A DNA stretch of 64,000 bases from Nakamurella lactea DSM 19367 (GTDB lineage Bacteria > Actinomycetota > Actinomycetes > Mycobacteriales > Nakamurellaceae): contig NZ_AUFT01000016.1 of NCBI RefSeq assembly GCF_000426645.1, positions 62,001-126,000 on the forward strand. Direction: 5' to 3'. A program made the position numbers and the translations under genes. Of the stretch, positions 8,776 through 50,548 are shown in pieces. Position 1 is the stretch's first letter. Every line of letters begins with the position of its first letter. The notes below the pieces were generated by a model. The model saw only the letters and a list, made by a program, of their open reading frames with translations, was not told where the DNA came from and did not search any database.

Positions 8776-9978
8776 TCAATTCTTTCGGTGTCCTGCCTCG
8801 GGCCGGGCATTTTTCCATCGATTCAGCAGCCCCGGTAAGCAGGCATTGTGCTCACCCAGTAATGGTGGTGGCGAGGTGGGATGCAGCGGCTCGCCGTTGT
8901 ACAGCACGCCGCTGCCGAATACTCGCAGTGCCCGTCCGGATGCGTCAGGGAACGGGAGCTCACTGATGAACTGCCGATGTTTCAGCTGTTCGGAATCGAC
9001 GGCCTGTGGGACGGTGAAGATCCTGGCAGCGGGCACACCATCGGCATTCAGAACGCGTTCCCACTCCAGCGCAGTTCGACTGCGTAATGCCGCATTCAGT
9101 TCGGTGTTCAGCGCGTCCCGGTTGTGTTTACGCGCTTCCCTGCCGGCGAAACGGACATCGGTGAGTAGGTCCACCCTGCCGATATGGCGGCAGAGCGTCT
9201 CGAACTGACCCTGTTGATTGGCAGCGATGTTCAACGGGCCGTCGGCCGCGTCGAAGGTACCCGACGGTGCCGCGGTGGCGTTCTGATTACCCATCGGCTC
9301 GGGAGGCAACCCGCTGATGAGGTAATTGGAGACCGCCCAGCCCATCGCGGACATCGACGCTTCCAACATGGAGACATCGAGAAAGGCGCCCAACCCGTCC
9401 CTCTGCCGGCCGTTGAGCGCCGCGGTGATGGCAAGCGCCGCAGCCAAACCGCCCAAGGTGTCGCAGATCGGAAAGCCGATCCGCAATGGCGCGGTCTCGA
9501 TGCTGCCGGTGACGCTCATCATTCCGGACAGGCCCTGGATCACCTGGTCGTAAGCCGGGGCCTGGCTCATCGGTCCCTGCTGCCCGAAGCCGGTGATGGC
9601 ACAGTAGACAAGTCCCGGGTTCAGTCTCTGCAGACGCGGCCAGTCGAACCCGAGTCGGGCGAGTACGCCGGCCCGGAAGTTCTCCAGCAGCACGTCGGCG
9701 TTACGGATCATCTCCTCGAATGTCGCCCGGCCGGCGGGATCCTTGAGGTCGAGTTCGATCGACTTCTTTCCGGCATTCTGGGCGAGGAACGATGCACCGA
9801 TCCCGGCCCGGTTGAGCTCCTCTTCGGGGCCCAGCTGCCTGGCGAGGTCACCGTGGCGGGGCAATTCGACCTTGACGACCTCGGCGCCCAGCAACATCAA
9901 TTGATAGCTGCAGTGGGGTCCGGCGAGGACGTTGGTCAGGTCGAGCACCCGGGTGCCGGTGAGGGGTCGATCGTGCAT
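8776..9978 (-). CDS. CaiB/BaiF (class III) CoA-transferase
   Basis: 400-aa family III CoA-transferase, which moves CoA between carboxylic acids through an aspartyl-CoA anhydride. N-terminal LTGTRVLDLTNVLAGPHCSY is the family signature; the catalytic Asp is D144 in APAYDQVIQG; VKVELPRHGD and ENFRAGVL are also conserved. The start is the ATG at 9978 because AAGGAG lies 7 nt upstream; the in-frame ATG at 10005 lacks this. The arrangement with the CoA lyase gene suggests acid activation then cleavage. The donor and acceptor acids cannot be read from sequence. Confidence 0.92.
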   Translation of the reverse strand: MHDRPLTGTRVLDLTNVLAGPHCSYQLMLLGAEVVKVELPRHGDLARQLGPEEELNRAGIGASFLAQNAGKKSIELDLKDPAGRATFEEMIRNADVLLENFRAGVLARLGFDWPRLQRLNPGLVYCAITGFGQQGPMSQAPAYDQVIQGLSGMMSVTGSIETAPLRIGFPICDTLGGLAAALAITAALNGRQRDGLGAFLDVSMLEASMSAMGWAVSNYLISGLPPEPMGNQNATAAPSGTFDAADGPLNIAANQQGQFETLCRHIGRVDLLTDVRFAGREARKHNRDALNTELNAALRSRTALEWERVLNADGVPAARIFTVPQAVDSEQLKHRQFISELPFPDASGRALRVFGSGVLYNGEPLHPTSPPPLLGEHNACLPGLLNRWKNARPEAGHRKN

Positions 9979-41203: not shown

Positions 41204-42769
41204 ATGAGCACCGCTGAGCCCCCGCTGCTGGAGATGCGCGGCATCGGCAAATCGTTCCCTGGAGTTGTTGCGCTGCAGGATGTCTCACTGACAGTTCGGC
41301 AGGGTGAGGTGGTCGCACTGCTCGGCGAGAACGGGGCCGGCAAATCGACCCTGATCAACGTGCTGTCCGGCGTCTTCCCCGGGTACGACGGCACCATCCT
41401 GATCGACGGCACGCCCGCACGCATCCACACCCCGACGGACGCCCAGCGCCTCGGCATCAGCACCATCCACCAGGAATTGAATCTCGTCCCGGACATGTCG
41501 GTCGCCGACAACATCTGGCTCGGCCGCGAACAGCGGGACGGCATCGGCCTGGTGAACCGGCGCAGCACCAACGCCTCGGCGAAGGCATTGCTCGAGCGGG
41601 TTGGGCTGACGATCAACCCGCGGCGGCCGGTCCGGCAGTTCCGGGTCGCCGAACAGCAGCTGATCGAGGTGGCCAAGGCGCTCTCGCTCAACACCAGGGT
41701 GCTGATCATGGACGAGCCGACCTCCGCCCTCGCCGACGCCGAAGTGCGCCGGCTGTTCCAGGTGATCCGGAGCCTGACCGCCGACGGGGTGGCGATCATC
41801 TACATCTCGCATCGGATCGAGGAACTGGAAGAGCTGGCCGACTCGGTCAACGTGCTGCGCGACGGACGGTGGATCGGGGCCCGTCCGATGGCCGGCGCTT
41901 CCCGCGACGAGCTGATCCGGATGATGGTCGGCAGATCGGTGGCCGACCTGCCGCGACGGATGCCGGAGGGTCGTCCGGCCGAGGCGGGGCCGCGGCTGCG
42001 GGTGCGGAACCTGAGCCTGCAGGGAGATTCCGTCAGCGGCCGGGTCGCTCTTCACCACATCGACCTTGACGTACACCCCGGCGAGATCGTCGGATTGGCC
42101 GGGCTGATGGGCGCGGGGCGGACCGAGACCCTTGAGTCGATCTTCGGCGCCTTCCCCGCGCGGGCGGTGACCGGCGAGATCCTGTTGGACGGCAAGCACT
42201 ATCAGCCGCAGTCGCCGAAGCACGCCATCGACAACGGGATCGTGCTGGTGGCCGAGGATCGCAAGCAACAGAGCCTGGTACTCGGGGCGACCGTCCGGTT
42301 CAACACCAGCCTGGCCGCGCTCGGCCGGTACCTGCGCTGGGGCTGGGTGCGCAACCGGGCCGAACGCGCAGCGGTCGTCACCGAGGTCCGGCGGCTGGGC
42401 GTGAAGACACCGAGCATCAACACCAGGATCAGCAACTTGTCCGGCGGCAATCAGCAGAAGGTGGTGCTGGCCAAGGGTCTGCTCACCCAGCCGACGGTCA
42501 TCCTGCTCGACGAGCCGACCAGAGGTATAGATATCGGCGCCAAGTCCGAGATTTACGAGCTGGTCAACGAACTCGCCGCCCAGGGGGTGGCCTTCCTGGT
42601 CGCCTCCTCGGAGCTCCCCGAACTGTTGCGGATGAGCGATCGGATCCTGGTGCTCTGCGAGGGCCGGGTCACCGCCGAGATGGACGCCGAGACCGCCGAC
42701 CAGGAGCAGATTCTCGAGGCCGCGATGGCACGCACCAGCGTGCTCGCGGGAGACGGAGGAGCCGCATGA
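41204..42769 (+). CDS. Sugar ABC transporter ATP-binding protein (RbsA/MglA-like)
   Basis: 521-aa tandem ATPase with two nucleotide-binding domains. N-terminal domain: Walker A GENGAGKST, signature FRVAEQQLIEVAKAL, Walker B VLIMDEPTSAL. C-terminal domain: degenerate Walker A-like GLMGAGRTE, LSGGNQQKVVLAKGL, ILLDEPTRGIDIGAK. This duplicated form belongs to the pentose/hexose importer class (CUT2). GGAGGGAG precedes the ATG. The ATGA overlap links it to the permease. Confidence 0.96.
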   Translation: MSTAEPPLLEMRGIGKSFPGVVALQDVSLTVRQGEVVALLGENGAGKSTLINVLSGVFPGYDGTILIDGTPARIHTPTDAQRLGISTIHQELNLVPDMSVADNIWLGREQRDGIGLVNRRSTNASAKALLERVGLTINPRRPVRQFRVAEQQLIEVAKALSLNTRVLIMDEPTSALADAEVRRLFQVIRSLTADGVAIIYISHRIEELEELADSVNVLRDGRWIGARPMAGASRDELIRMMVGRSVADLPRRMPEGRPAEAGPRLRVRNLSLQGDSVSGRVALHHIDLDVHPGEIVGLAGLMGAGRTETLESIFGAFPARAVTGEILLDGKHYQPQSPKHAIDNGIVLVAEDRKQQSLVLGATVRFNTSLAALGRYLRWGWVRNRAERAAVVTEVRRLGVKTPSINTRISNLSGGNQQKVVLAKGLLTQPTVILLDEPTRGIDIGAKSEIYELVNELAAQGVAFLVASSELPELLRMSDRILVLCEGRVTAEMDAETADQEQILEAAMARTSVLAGDGGAA

Positions 42770-43980
42770 CCGGGACCCCGCCCAGCAGGCCGAAGGCTCC
42801 GCCGGGATCGACTCCGGAGAACGGGGGAGCGGTCGTGCCACCGGCACCCGGCGCGCTGCGCCGGGCGCTGCCGCTGTTGGGATCGCTGCAGGGATACATC
42901 GGACTGGTGCTGATCCTGATCATCGGGATCTGGTCGCAGGGCGACCATTTCCTGTCCGTCGAGAACTTCACCAACGCGATCGGCTACTTCGCCCCGCGCG
43001 GCATCCTCGCGGTAGGGATGACCCTGGTGATCATCGCCGCCGGGATCGATCTGTCGGTCGGCGCCCTGCTCGCCGTCGGCGGCACCACCGCTGCGTGGCT
43101 GCTCACCGAGCAGAACTGGCCGGTGGTGGCGATCGTTCCGGTCTGCATGCTGGTCTGCGCCGTCTTCGGGCTGGTCAACGGCGCCGGGACCGCGCTGCTG
43201 AAGATCCAGTCGTTCGTCATGACGTTGGCGATGATGACGATTGCCAGGGGCATCGTCCGCGAGTTCAGCAACAACACCTCGATCGGTACGGTGCAGATCG
43301 ATGCCGCCGGCAACGTACTGCCCGGCTCGCAGCAGTTCCAGAAACTCGGTACCCCAGGGACATCGCTGTTCGACGTGCCGATCCTGGGGTATTTCCCGGT
43401 GCTCGCCCTGGTCGTGGTGGTCATCGTCTTCCAACTGATCCTGTCCAAGACCAAGTTCGGCCGGCACATCTACGCGGTCGGCGGGAACCCGACCGCGGCC
43501 CGGCTCTCCGGGGTCAACGTCACCGCCGTCACCATCGCGGTGTTCACCATCTCCGGAATGCTGGCCGGGCTCGCCGGACCGATCAACGCCGCCTACAACG
43601 CCTCCGCCGACCCGGTGGCCGGCATGGGTTACGAACTGGACGCGATTGCCGCGGTGGTGATCGGCGGCGCCAGCCTGATGGGTGGGCGGGGCAGCGTCGT
43701 CGGCACCTTCATCGGCGCCCTCATCCTGACACTGTTGGACAACGTGTTGGGGCTCAACCAGTTCAGTGCGAACTGGCAGATGATTATCAAGGGCATCATC
43801 GTCATTCTGGCGGTGGTGATTCAGCGTCCGGAACTGTTCTCCGACCTGGCCGCCTGGCTCAAACGCACGTTCCGCCGCGAAGACGGCGGGGCCGAGGCGA
43901 CCGCATCCGCCACCGACCCGTTGGCCGGGGATGTCAAGAGCCCGTCCGAGGAGGTGCCAGACCGCGATCGGGCCAGGTGA
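42766..43980 (+). CDS. Sugar ABC transporter permease (RbsC-like)
   Basis: 404-aa membrane protein of the RbsC family, about ten helices, with GMTLVIIAAGIDLSVGALLA and YELDAIAAVVIGGASLMGGRGS, both diagnostic for CUT2 permeases. Pro/Gly-rich cytoplasmic N-terminus (~35 residues) and an acidic/basic C-terminal tail extend beyond the core. Expected to work as a homodimer with the preceding ATPase and the following binding lipoprotein. Confidence 0.95.
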   Translation: MTGTPPSRPKAPPGSTPENGGAVVPPAPGALRRALPLLGSLQGYIGLVLILIIGIWSQGDHFLSVENFTNAIGYFAPRGILAVGMTLVIIAAGIDLSVGALLAVGGTTAAWLLTEQNWPVVAIVPVCMLVCAVFGLVNGAGTALLKIQSFVMTLAMMTIARGIVREFSNNTSIGTVQIDAAGNVLPGSQQFQKLGTPGTSLFDVPILGYFPVLALVVVVIVFQLILSKTKFGRHIYAVGGNPTAARLSGVNVTAVTIAVFTISGMLAGLAGPINAAYNASADPVAGMGYELDAIAAVVIGGASLMGGRGSVVGTFIGALILTLLDNVLGLNQFSANWQMIIKGIIVILAVVIQRPELFSDLAAWLKRTFRREDGGAEATASATDPLAGDVKSPSEEVPDRDRAR

Positions 43981-44026: not shown

Positions 44027-44054
44027 ACCACAGCATCGTCACCACAGCATCGTC
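44027..44054 (+). repeat. 14-bp tandem duplication upstream of the binding-protein gene
   Basis: ACCACAGCATCGTC occurs twice head to tail (44027-44040, 44041-44054), directly before the Shine-Dalgarno of the next gene. Could adjust mRNA structure or be a slippage product. Confidence 0.9.
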
Positions 44055-44071
44055 ACAACAAGGGAGTCGTG

Positions 44072-45265
44072 ATGCAGAGAAAGAAACTCGCCATCCTCGG
44101 AGCAGTCGCCGCCGCCACCGCGCTGGTGCTGTCGGCCTGTAGCACCAACGCCGACAGCGGCAGCAGCACGCCGCCGGCCGCCACCAGCGCGGCCGACACC
44201 GCCGCCGCCACCAGCGAGGCCGCCACCAGCGAGGCCGCCACCAGCGCGGCCGACACCGCCGGTGCCGAGTCGAGTGCCGCGGACACCGCCGGCAGCGAAT
44301 CGAGCGCCGCCGACACCGCCGGCAGTGCCGACGCGTCCGCCAGCGGCGCGGCCGGCGGCCCGATGACGTCGGTCGATCTGCCGAAGAAGGACAAGTACGT
44401 CATCGGCTATTCGCAGTCGAACAACGCCGAGCCCTACCGCGCCCAGCTCAACAAGCAGCTGCAGTACTACGTTGCCCAGCACCCGGAGCTGGAGCTGCTG
44501 CCGATCTCCGATGCGGCGCAGGACAGCTCCAAGCAGGTGAGTCAGGTGCAGCAGTTCATTTCGCAGAAGGTCGACATCCTGATCGTCTCGCCGAACGAGG
44601 CCGACCCGCTGACCCCGCCGGTCGAGCAGGCCTGCAAGGCCGGCATCAAGGTGATCATCCTCGATCGCACCGTCAACACCGACTGCATCACCGCCTTCAT
44701 CGGCGGCGACAACGTGGCGGCCGGCAAGGCGGCCGGCGAGCTCGCGGCCAAGCTGCTGCCGGACGGCGGCAATGTGGCCGAGCTGCAGGGCATCCTGTCC
44801 AACCAGCCGCAGATCGACCGCAACCAGGGCTTCGCCGACGGCATCTCGTCGAACCCGAAGATCAAGATCGTTGAGCATCAGGAAGCCAAGTGGCTCAAGG
44901 AGGACGCCACCAAGATCATGCAGCAGTGGCTGCAGGGCGGCACCAAGATCGACCTGGTCTACGCGCAGAACGACCCGATGGCGCTCGGCGCCTACCTGGC
45001 CGCGGCCGGCGCCGGTAAGCAGAAGGAGATCAAGTTCATCGGCACCGACGGTCTGGCCATTCCGGACGGCGGTATCCGGGCCGTGCAGCAGGGACAGTTG
45101 GCCGGCACCTTCATCTACCCGACAGGTGCCGCGGAGGCCGTAGACACCATCATGAAGATGGTTGGTGGCGAAGAGTTCTCGGCCAAGCAGGTGTTGCCGG
45201 TCACCGCGGTGACCCCGGAGAACGCCGACGAGCTCTACAAGAAGTACGACTTCTCGAACAAGTGA
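44072..45265 (+). CDS. Sugar-binding lipoprotein (RbsB-like)
   Basis: 397-aa Peripla_BP_4 protein. Signal peptide MQRKKLAILGAVAAATALVL with lipobox LSAC; then an unusual ~80-residue Ala/Ser/Thr/Asp linker of repeats (ATSEAATSEA, SSAADTAGSE); binding fold from about residue 107 (YVIGYSQSNNAEPYRAQLNK). Retained sugar-contact regions include ISPN-like VSPNEADPL, DRTVNTD and QNDPMALGAYLAA. GGGAG is 5-6 nt before the ATG. The linker may span a thick cell wall. Ligand probably a furanose or pentose, by family and context only. Confidence 0.93.
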   Translation: MQRKKLAILGAVAAATALVLSACSTNADSGSSTPPAATSAADTAAATSEAATSEAATSAADTAGAESSAADTAGSESSAADTAGSADASASGAAGGPMTSVDLPKKDKYVIGYSQSNNAEPYRAQLNKQLQYYVAQHPELELLPISDAAQDSSKQVSQVQQFISQKVDILIVSPNEADPLTPPVEQACKAGIKVIILDRTVNTDCITAFIGGDNVAAGKAAGELAAKLLPDGGNVAELQGILSNQPQIDRNQGFADGISSNPKIKIVEHQEAKWLKEDATKIMQQWLQGGTKIDLVYAQNDPMALGAYLAAAGAGKQKEIKFIGTDGLAIPDGGIRAVQQGQLAGTFIYPTGAAEAVDTIMKMVGGEEFSAKQVLPVTAVTPENADELYKKYDFSNK

Positions 45266-45287
45266 TTCCTCGGTAGTCCGGGGTTCC

Positions 45288-45333
45288 GTCATCCCCGTCG
45301 CCGGCAGCCCGATCGCCGCGCGGCGGGGATGAC
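45288..45333 (+). terminator. Terminator of the sugar ABC operon
   Basis: GTCATCCCCGTCG (45288-45300) pairs with CGGCGGGGATGAC (45321-45333), with one G-T pair and a 20-nt loop. It sits 23 bp after the binding-protein stop. Confidence 0.7.
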
Positions 45334-45352
45334 GCGTGCCGCTCGCACGGGG

Positions 45353-45456
45353 GTGGGATGTGGTGGCTCTGCCCGTCCGGAGGTCACCGAGACGTCGCAA
45401 AGGTGTGGGATGTGGTCGCTCTGCCCGTCCGGAGGTCACCGAGACGTCGTAAACGG
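45353..45456 (+). repeat. 52-bp direct repeat, two copies
   Basis: Copy 1 (45353-45404) and copy 2 (45405-45456) both read GTGGGATGTGGT then CTCTGCCCGTCCGGAGGTCA and CCGAGACGTCG, differing at about five positions, mainly at the ends. No spacer, so not a CRISPR. Function unknown. Confidence 0.9.
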
Positions 45457-45552
45457 CGGGATCGGGAGCGACCGGGCGCCACGCCCAGTGGTCGCCGTGA
45501 CGCATCTGGGGGACAGGTCTTGTGATCGGCAGTCCGGCGTGCTTCGGTAGAC

Positions 45553-45568
45553 GAGAAATCGATTGCTC
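45553..45568. promoter_or_regulatory. LacI-type operator of the glycosidase gene
   Basis: GAGAAATCGATTGCTC is a 16-bp near-palindrome (one mismatched pair) with the same AATCGATT core as the ABC operon operator, 27 bp before the ATG. Confidence 0.65.
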
Positions 45569-45595
45569 ACAGCGATTCGGTCCCGGAGGACAGCA

Positions 45596-48500
45596 ATGGC
45601 GCACTCCTACCTGAACACGTCCCGGCTCAAGACGGCCCGCCGCTACCCGTCCCGTCGCAAGAGTCCGCTGGTGCTGGTGACGGCGGTGGTCACCGCGGTG
45701 GCGCTGGCCGTGCCCGCCACCGCGAGTGCCGGCACCGGCGCGGCGCCCGCTGCCCAGCAGGCGTCGGCCCACCAAGGATCGGCCCGACAAGCATCCCTGC
45801 AGCAGGCGGCCGCCGAGTACGCGGCGCAGCATCCCGCCGGCGCCGACGCCCGGCCGGATGCCAAGGGCCCGACCGGATGGGACACCTACCGGCAGCTGGA
45901 CAGGGTGGACGAGATCACCACCGGGGTGCAGACCCACCAGTTCTCCAGCTTCGACCGCACCGGCGGCAATGACGATGGCTTCGGCGGCACCTACAGCTGC
46001 CTGCGCACCATCGCCGAGGGCTGCGTGCTCGCCGAACGGTCCGGGCCCGGCGAGATCGACTCGATCTGGTTCACCAGGGACAACGGCGACATCACCAACA
46101 CCGGCAACATCAGGATCGACCTGGACGGGAAGACCGTGCTGGACGCCAAGATCCAGGACATCGTCGACGGCAAGCTCGGCGCCCCGTTCGTCTATCCGCT
46201 GGTGGCCAACGCCGACCAGAGCAGCGGTGGCGTGTACATCAAGGTGCCGATGTCCTACCGCAGCTCGATGCGGGTCACCACCACCAAGAATCCGCTGTTC
46301 TACCACGTCACCTACCGCACCTTCGCCGACGCCGTCGGCGTCAGCACCTACGACCCGGCCGACAAGGCAGCCGACGTGGTGGCCGCGGCAAAGACCTGGG
46401 GCAGCAAGGATCCCAAGCCGGCGGCCGCTCACCCCAGGACCGTCACCGACGGCTTCACGCTGAAGCCGGGCCAGCGGACAACGCTGGCGAATCTGAAGGG
46501 CTCCGGCTCGATCGACGAGGTCAAGCTGGAGATCCCGCAGATCGTCGGCCCGAAGCCGCTCCCGCTGATCAGCGACGACGGTCGGGCGCACAAGGGGAGC
46601 AGCACCTTCACCGTCGCGATCGATCCGGCCAACGCCGGGGTCAAGCTCACCCGTCGGTTCGACGCGAACTCCAACCACCAGGTGGCCGACATCTACGTCG
46701 ACGGTAAGAAAGTCGGCCAGTGGCCGGCCACCGACGACGGCGCCGGCTTCTGGTCGTACCAGACCGTGACACTGCCGGCCGCCGCCACCGCCGGCAAGTC
46801 GAGCATCACCGTGAAGAACGAGTTCGTCTCGGCCAGCATCGACTGGAACGAGTTCCGCTATTGGGTGGACTCTGTCGTTGCCGGCCAGGACAAGCGCACC
46901 GACGAACTCGACGTCGGCACCTCGACCGCTGCGGTCGCCAGCGAGCAGGCACACGACTACGCGATCGTCGGCCAGACCTGGACCGGCACGCCGAACCAGA
47001 CCGACCGGCCCACCGACACAGACGACCCGAAGATCCTGGCGTCCAACGAGTTGCTCCGCGACGTGATGGTCAGGGTCAGCTTCGACGGCGCCAGGACCGT
47101 CGAGTCCCCGCTGGGCGAGTTCTTCGGCTCCGGGCTGACCGAGAGCACGGTGAAGGCGATGTTCTACAAGGTCGACACCGCGCCGGACGGCTGGTACACG
47201 AGTTGGTGGCCGATGCCGTTCGCCGGCAAGGCAACCGTGGAACTGGTGAACAACTCGGATCAGACGATCAGCACCGGGAGATCCTCGGTCACCTCGCACG
47301 CCGACCCGCAGATCGGTAGCGAACTGCGCCGCAGCGACGCCAGGATCGGCTACTTCAACGCCAGCCACCACCGCGCCGACACCGTCGACGGGCAGGACTG
47401 GCTGTTCCTGGACACCGCCGGCAAGGGCAAGTTCGTCGGCGTCAGCCACACCATGCGCGGGCACATCACCAGCGGCAACATCCGCGACTACCTTGAGGGT
47501 GACGAGCGCAGCTACGCCGACGGTTCCCGATCGCCGGCGCTGCACGGCACCGGCACCGAAGACTTCTACGAGTCCGGCTGGTACTTCAACCGGCGGGAGT
47601 TCAGCAACCCGATGAACGGCCTGTCGGCGATGCCGACCAAGTCCTACGGCTGCGAATTCCAGTGCGACGCACCGTATCGGCTGATGATCGGCGATGCGGT
47701 GGCGTTCAACGACGGGCTGACGTTCGGCATCGAGCACGGCCCGGTCGACAACGAGCCGGCCGAGTACTCCTCGACCGCGTACTGGTACGGATTCGCCGAC
47801 CAACCGGCCGCCAGGATCACCGACCAGGTCGATGTCGGCGACACCAGCAGCGAGCAGGCGCACCGGTACACCGGCGGGACCGCCCCGACCACCAGGACCG
47901 AGACCTTCGAGGGCGATCACGACGCCGAGCCGGTCACCGCGAGTGTCGAAGAGAGCACCGAGCCGGTGAGCTTCACCCTCGGGATCGACCCGCACAATGC
48001 CGGCGTCACCCTGCAGCGAATGTCGCTGCAGAGCAACGACTATCAGTCGGCCGCCGTCTCGGTGAACGGCGAGCCCGCCGGGACCTGGCTGCAGCCGCTG
48101 GGCAACCAGACCCACCAGTGGCTGGACGACTCCTTCCAGCTGGATCCTGCGCTGACCGCCGGCCGTGACCGGCTCACCATCACCGTGACCCCGACCGCGG
48201 GATCGCCGGCCTGGAGCGCCGCGTCGTACCAGGCGATCTCGCTGGTCGATCGCAAGGCCGACCACAGCAAACCGGGTGCGATCGACGGCCTGGTGGCCAT
48301 CGGCACCGACAGCAATAGCAACCGGTTGTCCTGGCAGGCGGCCACCGACGATGTGGCTGTTCATCACTACCTGGTCTACGGGTCCACCGACCGGCACTTC
48401 CGTCCGTCGACCACGACCCTGGTCGGTAGTCCGACGCTGTCCTCGTTCACCCACACCGGCCTCGGTCTCGGGCAGACCTGGTACTACCAGGTGCGTGCGG

Positions 48501-50548
48501 TGGACAGCTCGGGCAACACCGGCAAGCTCTCCGCGACTGTGCACGCCACCACCGGCGACACCCTCGGGATCGAGGGAGAGTCGTTGCTGCCGGCGGTGAG
48601 TAGCACCGCGGATGTGGTGGCACAGGGCAACTGCTGCGGTGTCACCTGGTCCGGCAACCAGCAGCTGTGGTTCCAGGGCACCAAGACCGGCGACACCGTG
48701 ACGCTGAAGTTCCAACTCGCCCAGGCCGGCACCTTCGACCTGTCCGCCGTGCTCACCAAGGCCCCGGACTACGCCATCGCCCAGCTGGCCATCGACGGCA
48801 AGAACCTCGGCGAGCCGATCGACGGCTACCAGGCAGCCGGGGTGGCCGCCGTCGGGCACGACCTCGGCAGCGCGACCCTGGCCAAGGGCGAGCACACCCT
48901 CACCCTGACGGCCACCGGCAAGAACGCCGCCGCGACCAGCTACATGATCGGCCTCGACGTTCTCGAACTGCACCTGCAGGGCCGGTCCGGGGCCACGGTG
49001 ACCTCGTACTCGCACACCGCAACCGTGGTGAACGCCGGCGACCGGCAACGGGTCTACGACCCTTCGGTCGGGGAGAGCGGGCCGTGGTATTTCAACGACC
49101 ACACCTTCGTCCAGGGGCCGGACAACTCCTGGCACCTGTTCGGTATCACCCACGCCGAGCCGGCCGACCCGCTCAACGAGAACTTCTTCGGCCACGCCAG
49201 CGCGACCAGCCTGACCCAAGCGCAGTACACCAAGCAGGACCCGGTGATCCAGGCCGACCCGACCCTCGGCGAGAAGCATGTCTGGGCGCCGTATGTGCTG
49301 CAGGACAACGGAACCTACTACATGTACTACTCGGCCGGGCTCGACGACAACCACGACGCCTATCAGATCCGGCTGGCCACCTCCACCGACCTGACGCACT
49401 GGACAAAGCGCGTCGAGCCGCTGTTCACCGATGGCTACGACGCCCGTGACCCGATGGTGCTGCGGGTCGGAAACCAGTGGGTCATGTACTACACAGCCAA
49501 CTCAACCCCGACCGGCGGCAACCACCAGGTCGCCTATCGCACCAGCTCCGACCTGATCCATTGGGGCGCGAAGAACGTCGCCTTCACCCACCCGGCCGTC
49601 GGCACCTTCGGTGGCCCGACCGAGTCGCCGTTCGTGGTGGCCAAGGACGGCTGGTACTACCTGTTCATCTGTTGCGACAAGAGCTACACGGACACCAGGG
49701 TGTACAAGAGCCGCGACCCGCTGAACTTCGACATCTCGCAGCTAGCTGGCCATGTCGACGCGCACGCCGCCGAGGTCGTCAAGGACACCGACGGGACGTA
49801 CTACGTCAGCGGCGCGGGCTGGGGGATGGGCGGCGTCTACCTGCGCCCGCTCAACTTCAACGGCACCGAGGTGACGGCCGGGAAGACGGTGCAGACCAGT
49901 AACTATCGGGCAACGGTGCAGACATCGCCGACCACTGCGATCACCTCGATGGACGTGGCCGACGGCTCCGGCGGTTGGCGGTCGGTACTGAACGACGACT
50001 ACCGGGCGACCGCGCCATATCTCGGGGTGAGCAACTTCGGCAATACGGACACCACCGGCCCGGCGGCATCGGTGACCGTGGCCGGCAGTCGAATCACGCT
50101 GGGCGGCATCCCGCTCGGTGACGAGCCGGTGACCGCCGACTGGACTCTCGACTTCGGCCGGGCCTCGTTCGGCAACACCATCGTCACCCACGTCACCGGG
50201 CCGACCACCGGCCCGGTCTGGGAGGCCTCGATGACGTTCGACGGCACGGGCAGCCGGATCGGCGACAATGCCGACCCGGACCGGAGCGTCGGCGACGTCC
50301 ACGGATTCGGAGCCTGGACCCAGAGCACCGGCAGCAACGCCAGCGTCGCCGTCGGCTACCGGGCCGGATCCGCGTTCGGCAGCGACAACACCTACTACGC
50401 AGGCTCCGGTGCCGTCGTCTGGCAGCCGCTGTGGCAGCCGGGCGGCCGCGGTTGGGCGCAGGGTGATCATCCGCTCGGCAGTTGGCGGGTGGCCGCCAGT
50501 CCGATCGGCGGCGACGATCTGCTCGGTGCCGCGCTCCTCGGCGGCTGA
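45596..50548 (+). CDS. Secreted multidomain glycosidase: GH172 (DUF2961) plus five-bladed-propeller glycosidase
   Basis: 1650 aa. Signal peptide ending near PATASAG (~44). From about 92 to 740 DUF2961/GH172: [56 protein letters not shown]. Beta-sandwich 790-880; fibronectin III 891-988 (ITW-like [14 protein letters not shown]); carbohydrate-binding-like module 990-1135; from about 1150 to 1425 a GH32/GH43/GH117-like propeller ([39 protein letters not shown]); C-terminal beta-sandwich to 1650. GGAGGA precedes ATG 45596. GH172 members cleave difructose anhydrides or D-arabinan; no anchor motif is visible at the C-terminus. Shares operators with the upstream sugar importer. Confidence 0.85.

What the first reader, a model, noticed from the sequence alone, without database searches (positions are those of the whole stretch)
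45596..50548. 1650-residue fusion of GH172 with a second, propeller-type glycosidase
GH172 (DUF2961) members act on difructose anhydrides and on D-arabinan. Here one is joined through FnIII and CBM-like modules to a GH32/43/117-like propeller. The two activities in series could degrade a fructan/difructose anhydride or mycobacterial-type arabinan, with products taken up by the neighbouring CUT2 transporter. I do not know a described enzyme with this layout.
Basis: partly seen in the sequence, partly recalled or inferred. Interest (0 to 1): 0.7.

Follow-up and report, generated by a model that had tools for sequence, protein, structure and literature searches.

The report
Two-enzyme fusion predicted to digest D-arabinan
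A bacterium of the genus Nakamurella carries a gene for one very large, probably secreted protein that joins two sugar-cutting enzymes, and comparison with related genomes suggests that together they dismantle the unusual D-arabinose polymer of mycobacterial-type cell walls, the second one by an activity still to be tested.

Summary
Window 45596-50548 (+) encodes 1650 aa: DUF2961/GH172 (E 1e-63), two repeated modules, a weak FnIII, a CBM-like module, and a GH43/GH32-type propeller with a C-terminal domain. The proposed catalytic acids are present in both halves. Full-length orthologues occur in N. endophytica (71%), N. aerolata (65%) and Isoptericola cucumis.

The propeller belongs to a conserved family for which I found no characterised member. 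Of 80 relatives fetched, 48 have a GH172 in the same locus (31/34 Nocardia, 17/46 others), and fusions in two domain orders recur in other phyla. 27 of 80 lie near an L-fucose/D-arabinose-type isomerase; the 26 such genomes tested all carry GH183 endo-D-arabinanase genes and none has GH116, the only exo-beta-D-arabinofuranosidase family I found described (confounded, 25 of 26 being Nocardia).

Best reading: an extracellular exo-alpha-D-arabinofuranosidase (GH172) fused to a second D-arabinan enzyme, perhaps exo-beta-D-arabinofuranosidase, releasing D-arabinose for the adjacent CUT2 importer.

The parts
45596..50548 (+). whole fusion ORF, 1650 aa
45596..45733 (+). putative Sec signal peptide, residues 1-46 (basic n-region, hydrophobic core, ATASA motif)
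   Evidence: read by eye; no signal-peptide program was available
45848..46555 (+). N-terminal part of GH172 (residues about 85-320), with the [13 protein letters not shown] motif
   Evidence: alignment to 4kq7 residues 12-63, weak on its own (12.3 bits; 1.7 bits); N125 and D127 in 8 of 8 rows of A3
46571..47005 (+). inserted module (residues 326-470), a diverged duplicate of residues 756-890; jelly-roll-like is my guess
   Evidence: 30% identity over 102 aligned columns, E 1e-11
47054..47788 (+). DUF2961 domain of GH172 (487-731), proposed acid/base E634 and nucleophile E655
47861..48265 (+). second copy of that module (756-890)
   Evidence: boundaries approximate
48287..48544 (+). FnIII-like module (898-983)
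   Evidence: Pfam fn3 below cut-off in the window protein, over it in the relative L043 (31.7 of 25)
48566..48979 (+). CBM6/MiXBM-like module (991-1128)
   Evidence: 7ehg E 2.3e-12; CBM_6 at E 1.4e-4, below cut-off, in orthologue L042
49004..49864 (+). GH43/GH32-like propeller (1137-1423), candidate triad D1168, D1285, E1343
49871..50545 (+). C-terminal domain (1426-1650) of no named family
   Evidence: no Pfam match there; aligned among 6 relatives
41204..42769 (+). CUT2 sugar ABC transporter ATP-binding protein
   Evidence: XylG/RbsA-like, below equivalog cut-offs
42766..43980 (+). CUT2 permease
   Evidence: RbsC-like, below cut-off
44072..45265 (+). CUT2 substrate-binding lipoprotein (PF13407); start taken at M48 of the called ORF
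   Evidence: RbsB 116.7 and YtfQ 112.4 bits, both far below equivalog cut-offs

Best explanation
A secreted bifunctional D-arabinan hydrolase. The GH172 half is a retaining exo-alpha-D-arabinofuranosidase that removes alpha-D-Araf from chain ends. The CBM-like and FnIII modules hold the enzyme on the polymer or position the second domain. The GH43/GH32-like propeller removes another furanose linkage that blocks GH172, most likely the beta-D-Araf caps of mycobacterial-type arabinan. Free D-arabinose is imported by the adjacent CUT2 transporter, and GH183 endo-D-arabinanases encoded elsewhere in the genome open the polymer. Shown: architecture, orthologues, presence of the proposed catalytic acids, gene linkage. 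Inferred: secretion, every activity, the substrate, the order of action, the transported sugar.
For: GH172: DUF2961 far over cut-off, Glu pair in 8 of 8 rows, profile matches to solved 8ah3 (DG02479, which I take to be DgGH172c of D. gadei, HMPREF9455_02479), 7v1v (alphaFFase1) and 8ic8 (exo-alpha-D-arabinofuranosidase). Propeller: D1285 and E1343 in 60 of 60 rows. Linkage: 48 of 80 propeller loci hold GH172. In Labedaea CUT2 SBP, GH172, FucI, propeller and FGGY follow on one strand; in Rugosimonospora the two halves are separate genes flanking what look like the CUT2 genes. GH172-propeller fusions in other phyla have two orders, and the fused state needs 5 changes on a quick tree of 60 rows, at least 2 forced by starred branches. 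D-arabinose signature: in 394 genomes of the class, 17 of 17 with this FucI also have GH172 (36 of 394 overall; hypergeometric 3e-20, kinship ignored) and 13 of 17 have GH183 (64 of 394 overall); D. gadei grown on D-arabinan makes a predicted fucose isomerase as its most abundant carbohydrate-active enzyme (PMC10115798, passage). Genus: the 3 genomes with the fusion are among the 4 of 17 with DUF4185 (Fisher 0.006), one of the 3, G008, only at the very cut-off. CUT2 SBP homologue in 7 of the 8 loci holding a GH172 at least 50% identical to the window's and in no other of the 80.
Against: No activity was tested and no fold could be predicted. The window genome has no FucI over the family cut-off (nearest relative 24% identical) and the fusion loci hold neither FucI nor FGGY. 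29 of 46 non-Nocardia propeller loci show none of GH172, FucI or FGGY. In the class sample only 4 of 394 genomes have the propeller, and the 3 besides our own have neither GH172 nor GH183. None of 17 FucI-centred loci has a propeller. A GH95 gene lies beside the N. aerolata fusion, which would fit an L-fucose glycan. The window genome also has GH116 genes. By profile the GH172 half scores higher with alphaFFase1 (92.5 bits) than with ExoMA1 (59.8), and the residue aligned with subsite Trp267 of alphaFFase1 is Asp.
Confidence: 0.55

Rival explanations
1. The fusion attacks both polymers of arabinogalactan: GH172 removes alpha-D-Araf and the propeller is a beta-D-galactofuranosidase that trims galactan; CUT2 imports galactofuranose as well as arabinose.
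For: A GH43_31 enzyme and the founder of GH182 hydrolyse mycobacterial-type galactan (PMC10115798, section 7 and passages). The SBP scores nearly as well with YtfQ, the galactofuranose binder (112.4 bits), as with RbsB (116.7), both far below cut-off.
Against: Propeller genes in most of the Nocardia loci and in Labedaea lie with FucI and FGGY, which fit D-arabinose rather than galactose; I did not search for galactose genes.
Confidence: 0.15
2. Fructan or difructose-anhydride hydrolase: GH172 acts as alphaFFase1, the propeller as a GH32 beta-fructofuranosidase.
For: GH172 includes alphaFFase1 (PMC8605356, passages), which outscores ExoMA1 with our profile; the propeller domain also passes the GH32N cut-off (34.4 against 22.1 bits).
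Against: FucI and FGGY neighbours of relatives do not fit fructose. I saw no fructan gene in the window neighbourhood, but did not search for fructan families one by one.
Confidence: 0.07
3. L-fucose (or other FucI substrate) glycan degradation, not arabinan.
For: FucI is named for L-fucose; a GH95 gene adjoins the fusion in N. aerolata.
Against: With that GH95 protein as query, a hit in 1 of the 80 propeller loci (itself) and 0 of the 17 FucI loci. Genomes with this FucI have GH172 in 17 of 17 and GH183 in 13 of 17.
Confidence: 0.08
4. Only the GH172 half is catalytic; the propeller is a binding or scaffolding module, or acts on an unrelated glycan.
For: Propellers without any GH172 in the locus in Verrucomicrobiota, Clostridia, Streptomyces and others (29 of 46 non-Nocardia loci without any partner); 3 of 4 propeller genomes of the class sample without GH172 or GH183.
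Against: RDP and TESP acids in 60 of 60 rows across phyla; repeated fusion and linkage to GH172.
Confidence: 0.15

Closest known systems
GH172 exo-alpha-D-arabinofuranosidases (DgGH172a/c, NocGH172, ExoMA1) and alphaFFase1
   Same: DUF2961 domain; catalytic Glu pair 21 residues apart (E634/E655 here, E270/E291 in alphaFFase1, E233/E254 in DgGH172c)
   Different: inserted module, signal-peptide-like start, fusion to a second hydrolase; Asp at the Trp267 position (YLEGDER in place of WWGEGND)
GH43/GH32/GH130/GH137-type five-bladed propellers
   Same: Pfam GH43 match for 60 of 60 members, GH32N for 52, GH130 for 46 (E up to 0.001); D and E aligned with those of a GH43 arabinanase; best profile match in the PDB 5mui/5mt2, named only Beta-galactosidase and recalled by me as the GH137 domain of BT0996
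   Different: a separate group, members 40-58% identical to the window's outside the orthologues, with NDHT, RDP, TESP and HAxE motifs; the window domain reaches no NCBIfam cut-off; no activity assigned in anything I found
Microbacterium arabinogalactanolyticum D-arabinan cluster (PMC10509167, passages and section 10)
   Same: GH172, GH183 and GH116 are all present in the window genome
   Different: there the genes are clustered, the exo-enzymes lack signal sequences and the SBP is SBP_bac_8; here the exo-enzyme has a signal-like start, is fused, and lies beside a CUT2 (PF13407) transporter, with GH183 and GH116 on other contigs

Membership tests
GH172 | DUF2961 domain over the curated cut-off | tested here: met
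   215 bits against 27
GH172 | catalytic Glu pair (E270/E291 of alphaFFase1) | tested here: met
   E634/E655, 8 of 8 rows; assignment of the pair from PMC8605356 passages
GH172 | oligomer with the active site shared between protomers | not testable with these tools
   structure prediction off
GH172 | hydrolysis of alpha-D-Araf or alpha-D-Fruf | not testable with these tools
   needs an assay
GH43 | PF04616 over its cut-off | tested here: met
   43.9 bits whole protein, 49.6 domain alone, cut-off 32.2; GH32N is also over its cut-off (34.4 of 22.1), so this does not single out GH43
GH43 | Asp/Asp/Glu catalytic triad | tested here: inconclusive
   D1285 and E1343 align with the GH43 arabinanase; D1168 is placed by motif only and its conservation (59 of 59 rows that reach it) is biased by the scan pattern NDHT
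GH43 | five-bladed propeller, inverting mechanism | not testable with these tools
   no model; needs a structure and NMR of products
GH116 exo-beta-D-arabinofuranosidase | GH116 catalytic domain (DUF608) | tested here: not met
   no such match in the window protein
Known D-arabinan cluster | GH183 in the genome | tested here: met
   2 matches over cut-off in G000, a third below it; none in the window itself
Known D-arabinan cluster | D-arabinose isomerase (FucI type) and kinase in the cluster | tested here: not met
   no FucI over cut-off in G000; FucI and FGGY queries gave no hit in the window
CUT2 sugar importer | ATPase, permease and PF13407 binding protein in a row | tested here: met

The most novel reading that the evidence does not exclude
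The propeller founds a second family of exo-beta-D-arabinofuranosidases, unrelated to GH116, that supplies the missing cap-removing step in Nocardia and relatives and has been fused to GH172 several times, giving one secreted enzyme that strips both alpha- and beta-D-Araf from mycobacterial-type arabinan.
Probability: 0.25. Interest if true: 0.75.

Novelty: new variant of a known kind. Interest (0 to 1): 0.55.

Why it matters
The two papers I could consult describe the first sets of enzymes that cut D-arabinan, from 2023, and call for more as tools for the cell wall of mycobacteria and relatives. This work adds a candidate family for one of the steps, links it to known ones by gene context in several phyla, and points to an extracellular strategy (secreted exo-enzymes plus CUT2) unlike the intracellular one proposed for Microbacterium. 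Each half can be expressed and assayed separately with substrates that those papers used.

Tried and rejected
Frameshift or misassembly as the source of the fusion: rejected, orthologues have the same layout and end. GH117: only a weak PDB match (3r4y, E 0.0017), not pursued. FucI or FGGY beside the window gene: not found. L087's apparent 1574-aa fusion: rejected, the two domains lie in different frames. Promoter/terminator scan between SBP and fusion: nothing found, uninformative in a high-GC genome. Absence of GH116 where the propeller is present, as proof of function: weakened, because the window genome has both and because I did not measure how common GH116 is in Nocardia without the propeller. 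GH183 in 26 of 26 is weakened by the fact that Nocardia have D-arabinan of their own (PMC10509167, section 10).

Selection effects: the 80 loci are the best 80 of 187 and 34 are Nocardia; the scan required one of two motifs, so conservation of NDHT and W(H/N)(L/M)FGIT is partly by construction; 59 of 81 tblastn-derived propeller sequences were kept as non-redundant for A2, with the window as the 60th row. Searches used 26 of the 27 loci with FucI over 50% identity; L102, a 4.6-kb contig, was left out. Flanks were at most 10 kb and 22 of the 80 loci are shorter than 14 kb, so absence of a partner is a lower bound on linkage. Genes were called by my own GC-frame script, which missed some (for example the ATPase and SBP of L028/L041). 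Gene names marked 'by eye' rest on the first 50-75 residues printed. One of the ten proteins was a filler stretch without a gene; it had no match.

Papers: PMC10509167 abstract, outline, passages and section 10; PMC10115798 passages and section 7; PMC8605356 passages; PMC10145562 one passage; all others only as search listings. Recalled, from no call: the catalytic residues of the GH43 arabinanase 1wl7, MiXBM as xanthan-binding, 5mui/5mt2 as GH137 of BT0996, 3r4y as GH117, GH76 as alpha-1,6-mannanases, CUT2 as monosaccharide importers.
Full report
What is there. The + strand ORF 45596-50548 encodes 1650 residues. Its codon pattern is that of a gene (GC at positions 1, 2, 3 of 0.61, 0.51, 0.91), and the 1786-aa ORF on the opposite strand is a high-GC shadow. 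Pfam finds DUF2961 (GH172) at 487-731 and Glyco_hydro_43 at 1211-1366, both over their cut-offs, and a sub-threshold fn3 at 898-983. In the PDB the protein matches 4kq7, 8ah3 and 7v1v (GH172 part), 7ehg MiXBM (residues 1017-1125) and GH43 arabinanases. Two modules, 326-470 and 756-890, are diverged copies of each other (30% over 102 columns, E 1e-11); the first lies between the N-terminal part of GH172 and its DUF2961 domain. By eye the N-terminus is a signal peptide.

Is it real and recurrent? In 81 related genomes the whole length is found in 3: our own, G008 (71%) and G005 (65%), all three among the 17 genomes of the genus. A scan of named genomes returned the same two loci, on contigs of the same lengths, as N. 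endophytica and N. aerolata, and added Isoptericola cucumis. A fourth Nakamurella genome, G015, keeps only a short 3' remnant of the gene, beside ORFs that by eye are the same homocysteine methyltransferase and YkuD genes as in the window, so the gene was probably lost there by deletion.

Catalytic residues. The Glu pair of GH172 is E634 and E655, invariant in 8 of 8 homologues. In alphaFFase1 the equivalents are the acid/base E270 and nucleophile E291 (PMC8605356 passages). The residue at the Trp267 position (a -1/+1 subsite residue there) is Asp here, whereas the 4 fused GH172s of other phyla have WWGEG. In the propeller, D1285 and E1343 are present in 60 of 60 rows and align with the D and E of a GH43 arabinanase; D1168 is present in 59 of 59 rows that reach it, but the scan selected for that motif.

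What the propeller is. Its family is compact: outside the orthologues, members are 40-58% identical to the window's, across phyla. Each of 60 members matches Pfam GH43, 52 GH32N and 46 GH130. The window domain reaches the cut-off of no NCBIfam model; for the other 59 members the call gives only E-values. The best PDB profile match, 5mui/5mt2, pairs blades out of register, so I file the domain only as a propeller of the GH43/GH32/GH130/GH137 kind.

Gene context of the propeller. Of 80 loci, 48 contain GH172 (31 of 34 Nocardia; 17 of 46 others, in Actinomycetota, Planctomycetota, Acidobacteriota, Bacillota, Sumerlaeota, Bacteroidota and one unplaced MAG); 27 contain FucI at over 50% identity and 28 such an FGGY kinase. 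For scale, one search lists 58 DUF2961 places in 394 whole genomes of the class, so a GH172 within 10 kb by chance is expected in far fewer than 1 of 80. Pfam confirms both domains in one frame in L042 (GH172 then propeller), L068 and L104 (propeller then GH172), L098 and L099 (GH172 then propeller). On a quick tree of 60 propellers the fused label needs 5 changes, at least 2 of them forced by well-supported branches. In Rugosimonospora (L043) the two halves are separate genes on either side of genes that look like the CUT2 set, and in Labedaea (L082) SBP, GH172, FucI, propeller and FGGY follow one another. These look like the unfused state of the window's arrangement.

Link to D-arabinose. 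In 394 genomes of the class, 17 have this FucI, 36 GH172 and 64 GH183; all 17 FucI genomes have GH172 (hypergeometric 3e-20) and 13 have GH183 (2.5e-8). These P values ignore kinship: the 17 come from 5 genera, 12 of them from one. Around those 17 FucI genes, GH172 lies in 11 loci, GH183 in 8, GH116 in 1 and the propeller in 0. [quoted passage not shown] gadei on D-arabinan (PMC10115798), and the Microbacterium cluster holds a putative isomerase and kinase (PMC10509167). In Nakamurella, the 3 genomes with the fusion are among the 4 of 17 with DUF4185, although one of them only just meets the cut-off. A distant FucI relative occurs in 7 of 17, all 3 fusion genomes included, over the cut-off in 3 of the 7. 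N. aerolata also carries a GH76-GH172 fusion and a GH116 close to a DUF4185. GH76 is a family of alpha-1,6-mannanases (general knowledge), which would suit lipoarabinomannan.

Which linkage does the propeller cut? GH116 is the only exo-beta-D-arabinofuranosidase family that I found described (PMC10509167). Of 27 propeller loci with FucI, 26 genomes were searched: GH116 in 0 of 26, GH183 in 26 of 26. That leaves the beta-cap step without an enzyme unless the propeller, or something unknown, does it. The inference is weak: 25 of the 26 are Nocardia, which have D-arabinan themselves, and the window genome itself has GH116 genes. I give it 0.25.

Results against. The window genome has no FucI over the cut-off. 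29 of 46 non-Nocardia propeller loci show none of the partners; the neighbours of such loci that I looked at by eye (23 loci) mostly look unrelated to sugar use. In the class sample the propeller is in 4 of 394 genomes and the 3 others have neither GH172 nor GH183. A GH95 gene adjoins the N. aerolata fusion. GH172 sequence alone does not separate arabinosidase from fructosidase.

Verdict. A real, conserved fusion and a new combination of known kinds. The substrate class is moderately supported, the propeller's activity is open. Library searches for GH172 with D-arabinan, DUF2961, D-arabinofuranosidase and GH172 with GH43 listed no paper whose title, abstract start or passages seen describe such a fusion; most subscription papers and CAZy itself could not be searched.

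Noticed in passing
L030:5867-10195 (-), genome G005 (N. aerolata): 1443-aa fusion of GH76 with GH172; the part after GH76 aligns with window residues 75-317 and 474-1150, so it carries the later modules too. Another two-enzyme GH172 protein, which would suit lipoarabinomannan.
   Followed up: partly
L140 about 9330-9510 (-), genome G015: Short 3' remnant of the fusion gene beside what by eye are the same homocysteine methyltransferase and YkuD genes as in the window; looks like loss by deletion.
   Followed up: partly
L039:8174-9337 (-), window genome contig C1: Second GH172 of the window genome, 53-57% identical to most GH172s of the Nocardia propeller loci, near ORFs that by eye look like a two-permease sugar transporter.
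   Followed up: partly
L132:9104-13035 (+), window genome contig C17: GH183 (DUF4185) gene followed by a SBP_bac_1/SBP_bac_8-type binding protein and a permease, reminiscent of the Microbacterium D-arabinan cluster.
   Followed up: partly
L164-L180: 17 FucI loci from 5 genera (12 from one): GH172 in 11, GH183 in 8, GH116 in 1, propeller in 0; putative D-arabinan clusters of another make-up.
   Followed up: partly
L133:9334-13741, window genome contig C15: Distant FucI relative (below cut-off) and an enolase-type dehydratase near another CUT2-like transporter (by eye); a possible alternative route for D-arabinose or L-fucose.
   Followed up: no
window 44039-49399 (-): 1786-aa open frame antisense to the SBP and fusion genes; an effect of high GC, not a gene.
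   Followed up: yes
3 of 60 members of alignment A2: Propellers whose C-terminal part matches Tectonin, a different partner from GH172.
   Followed up: no
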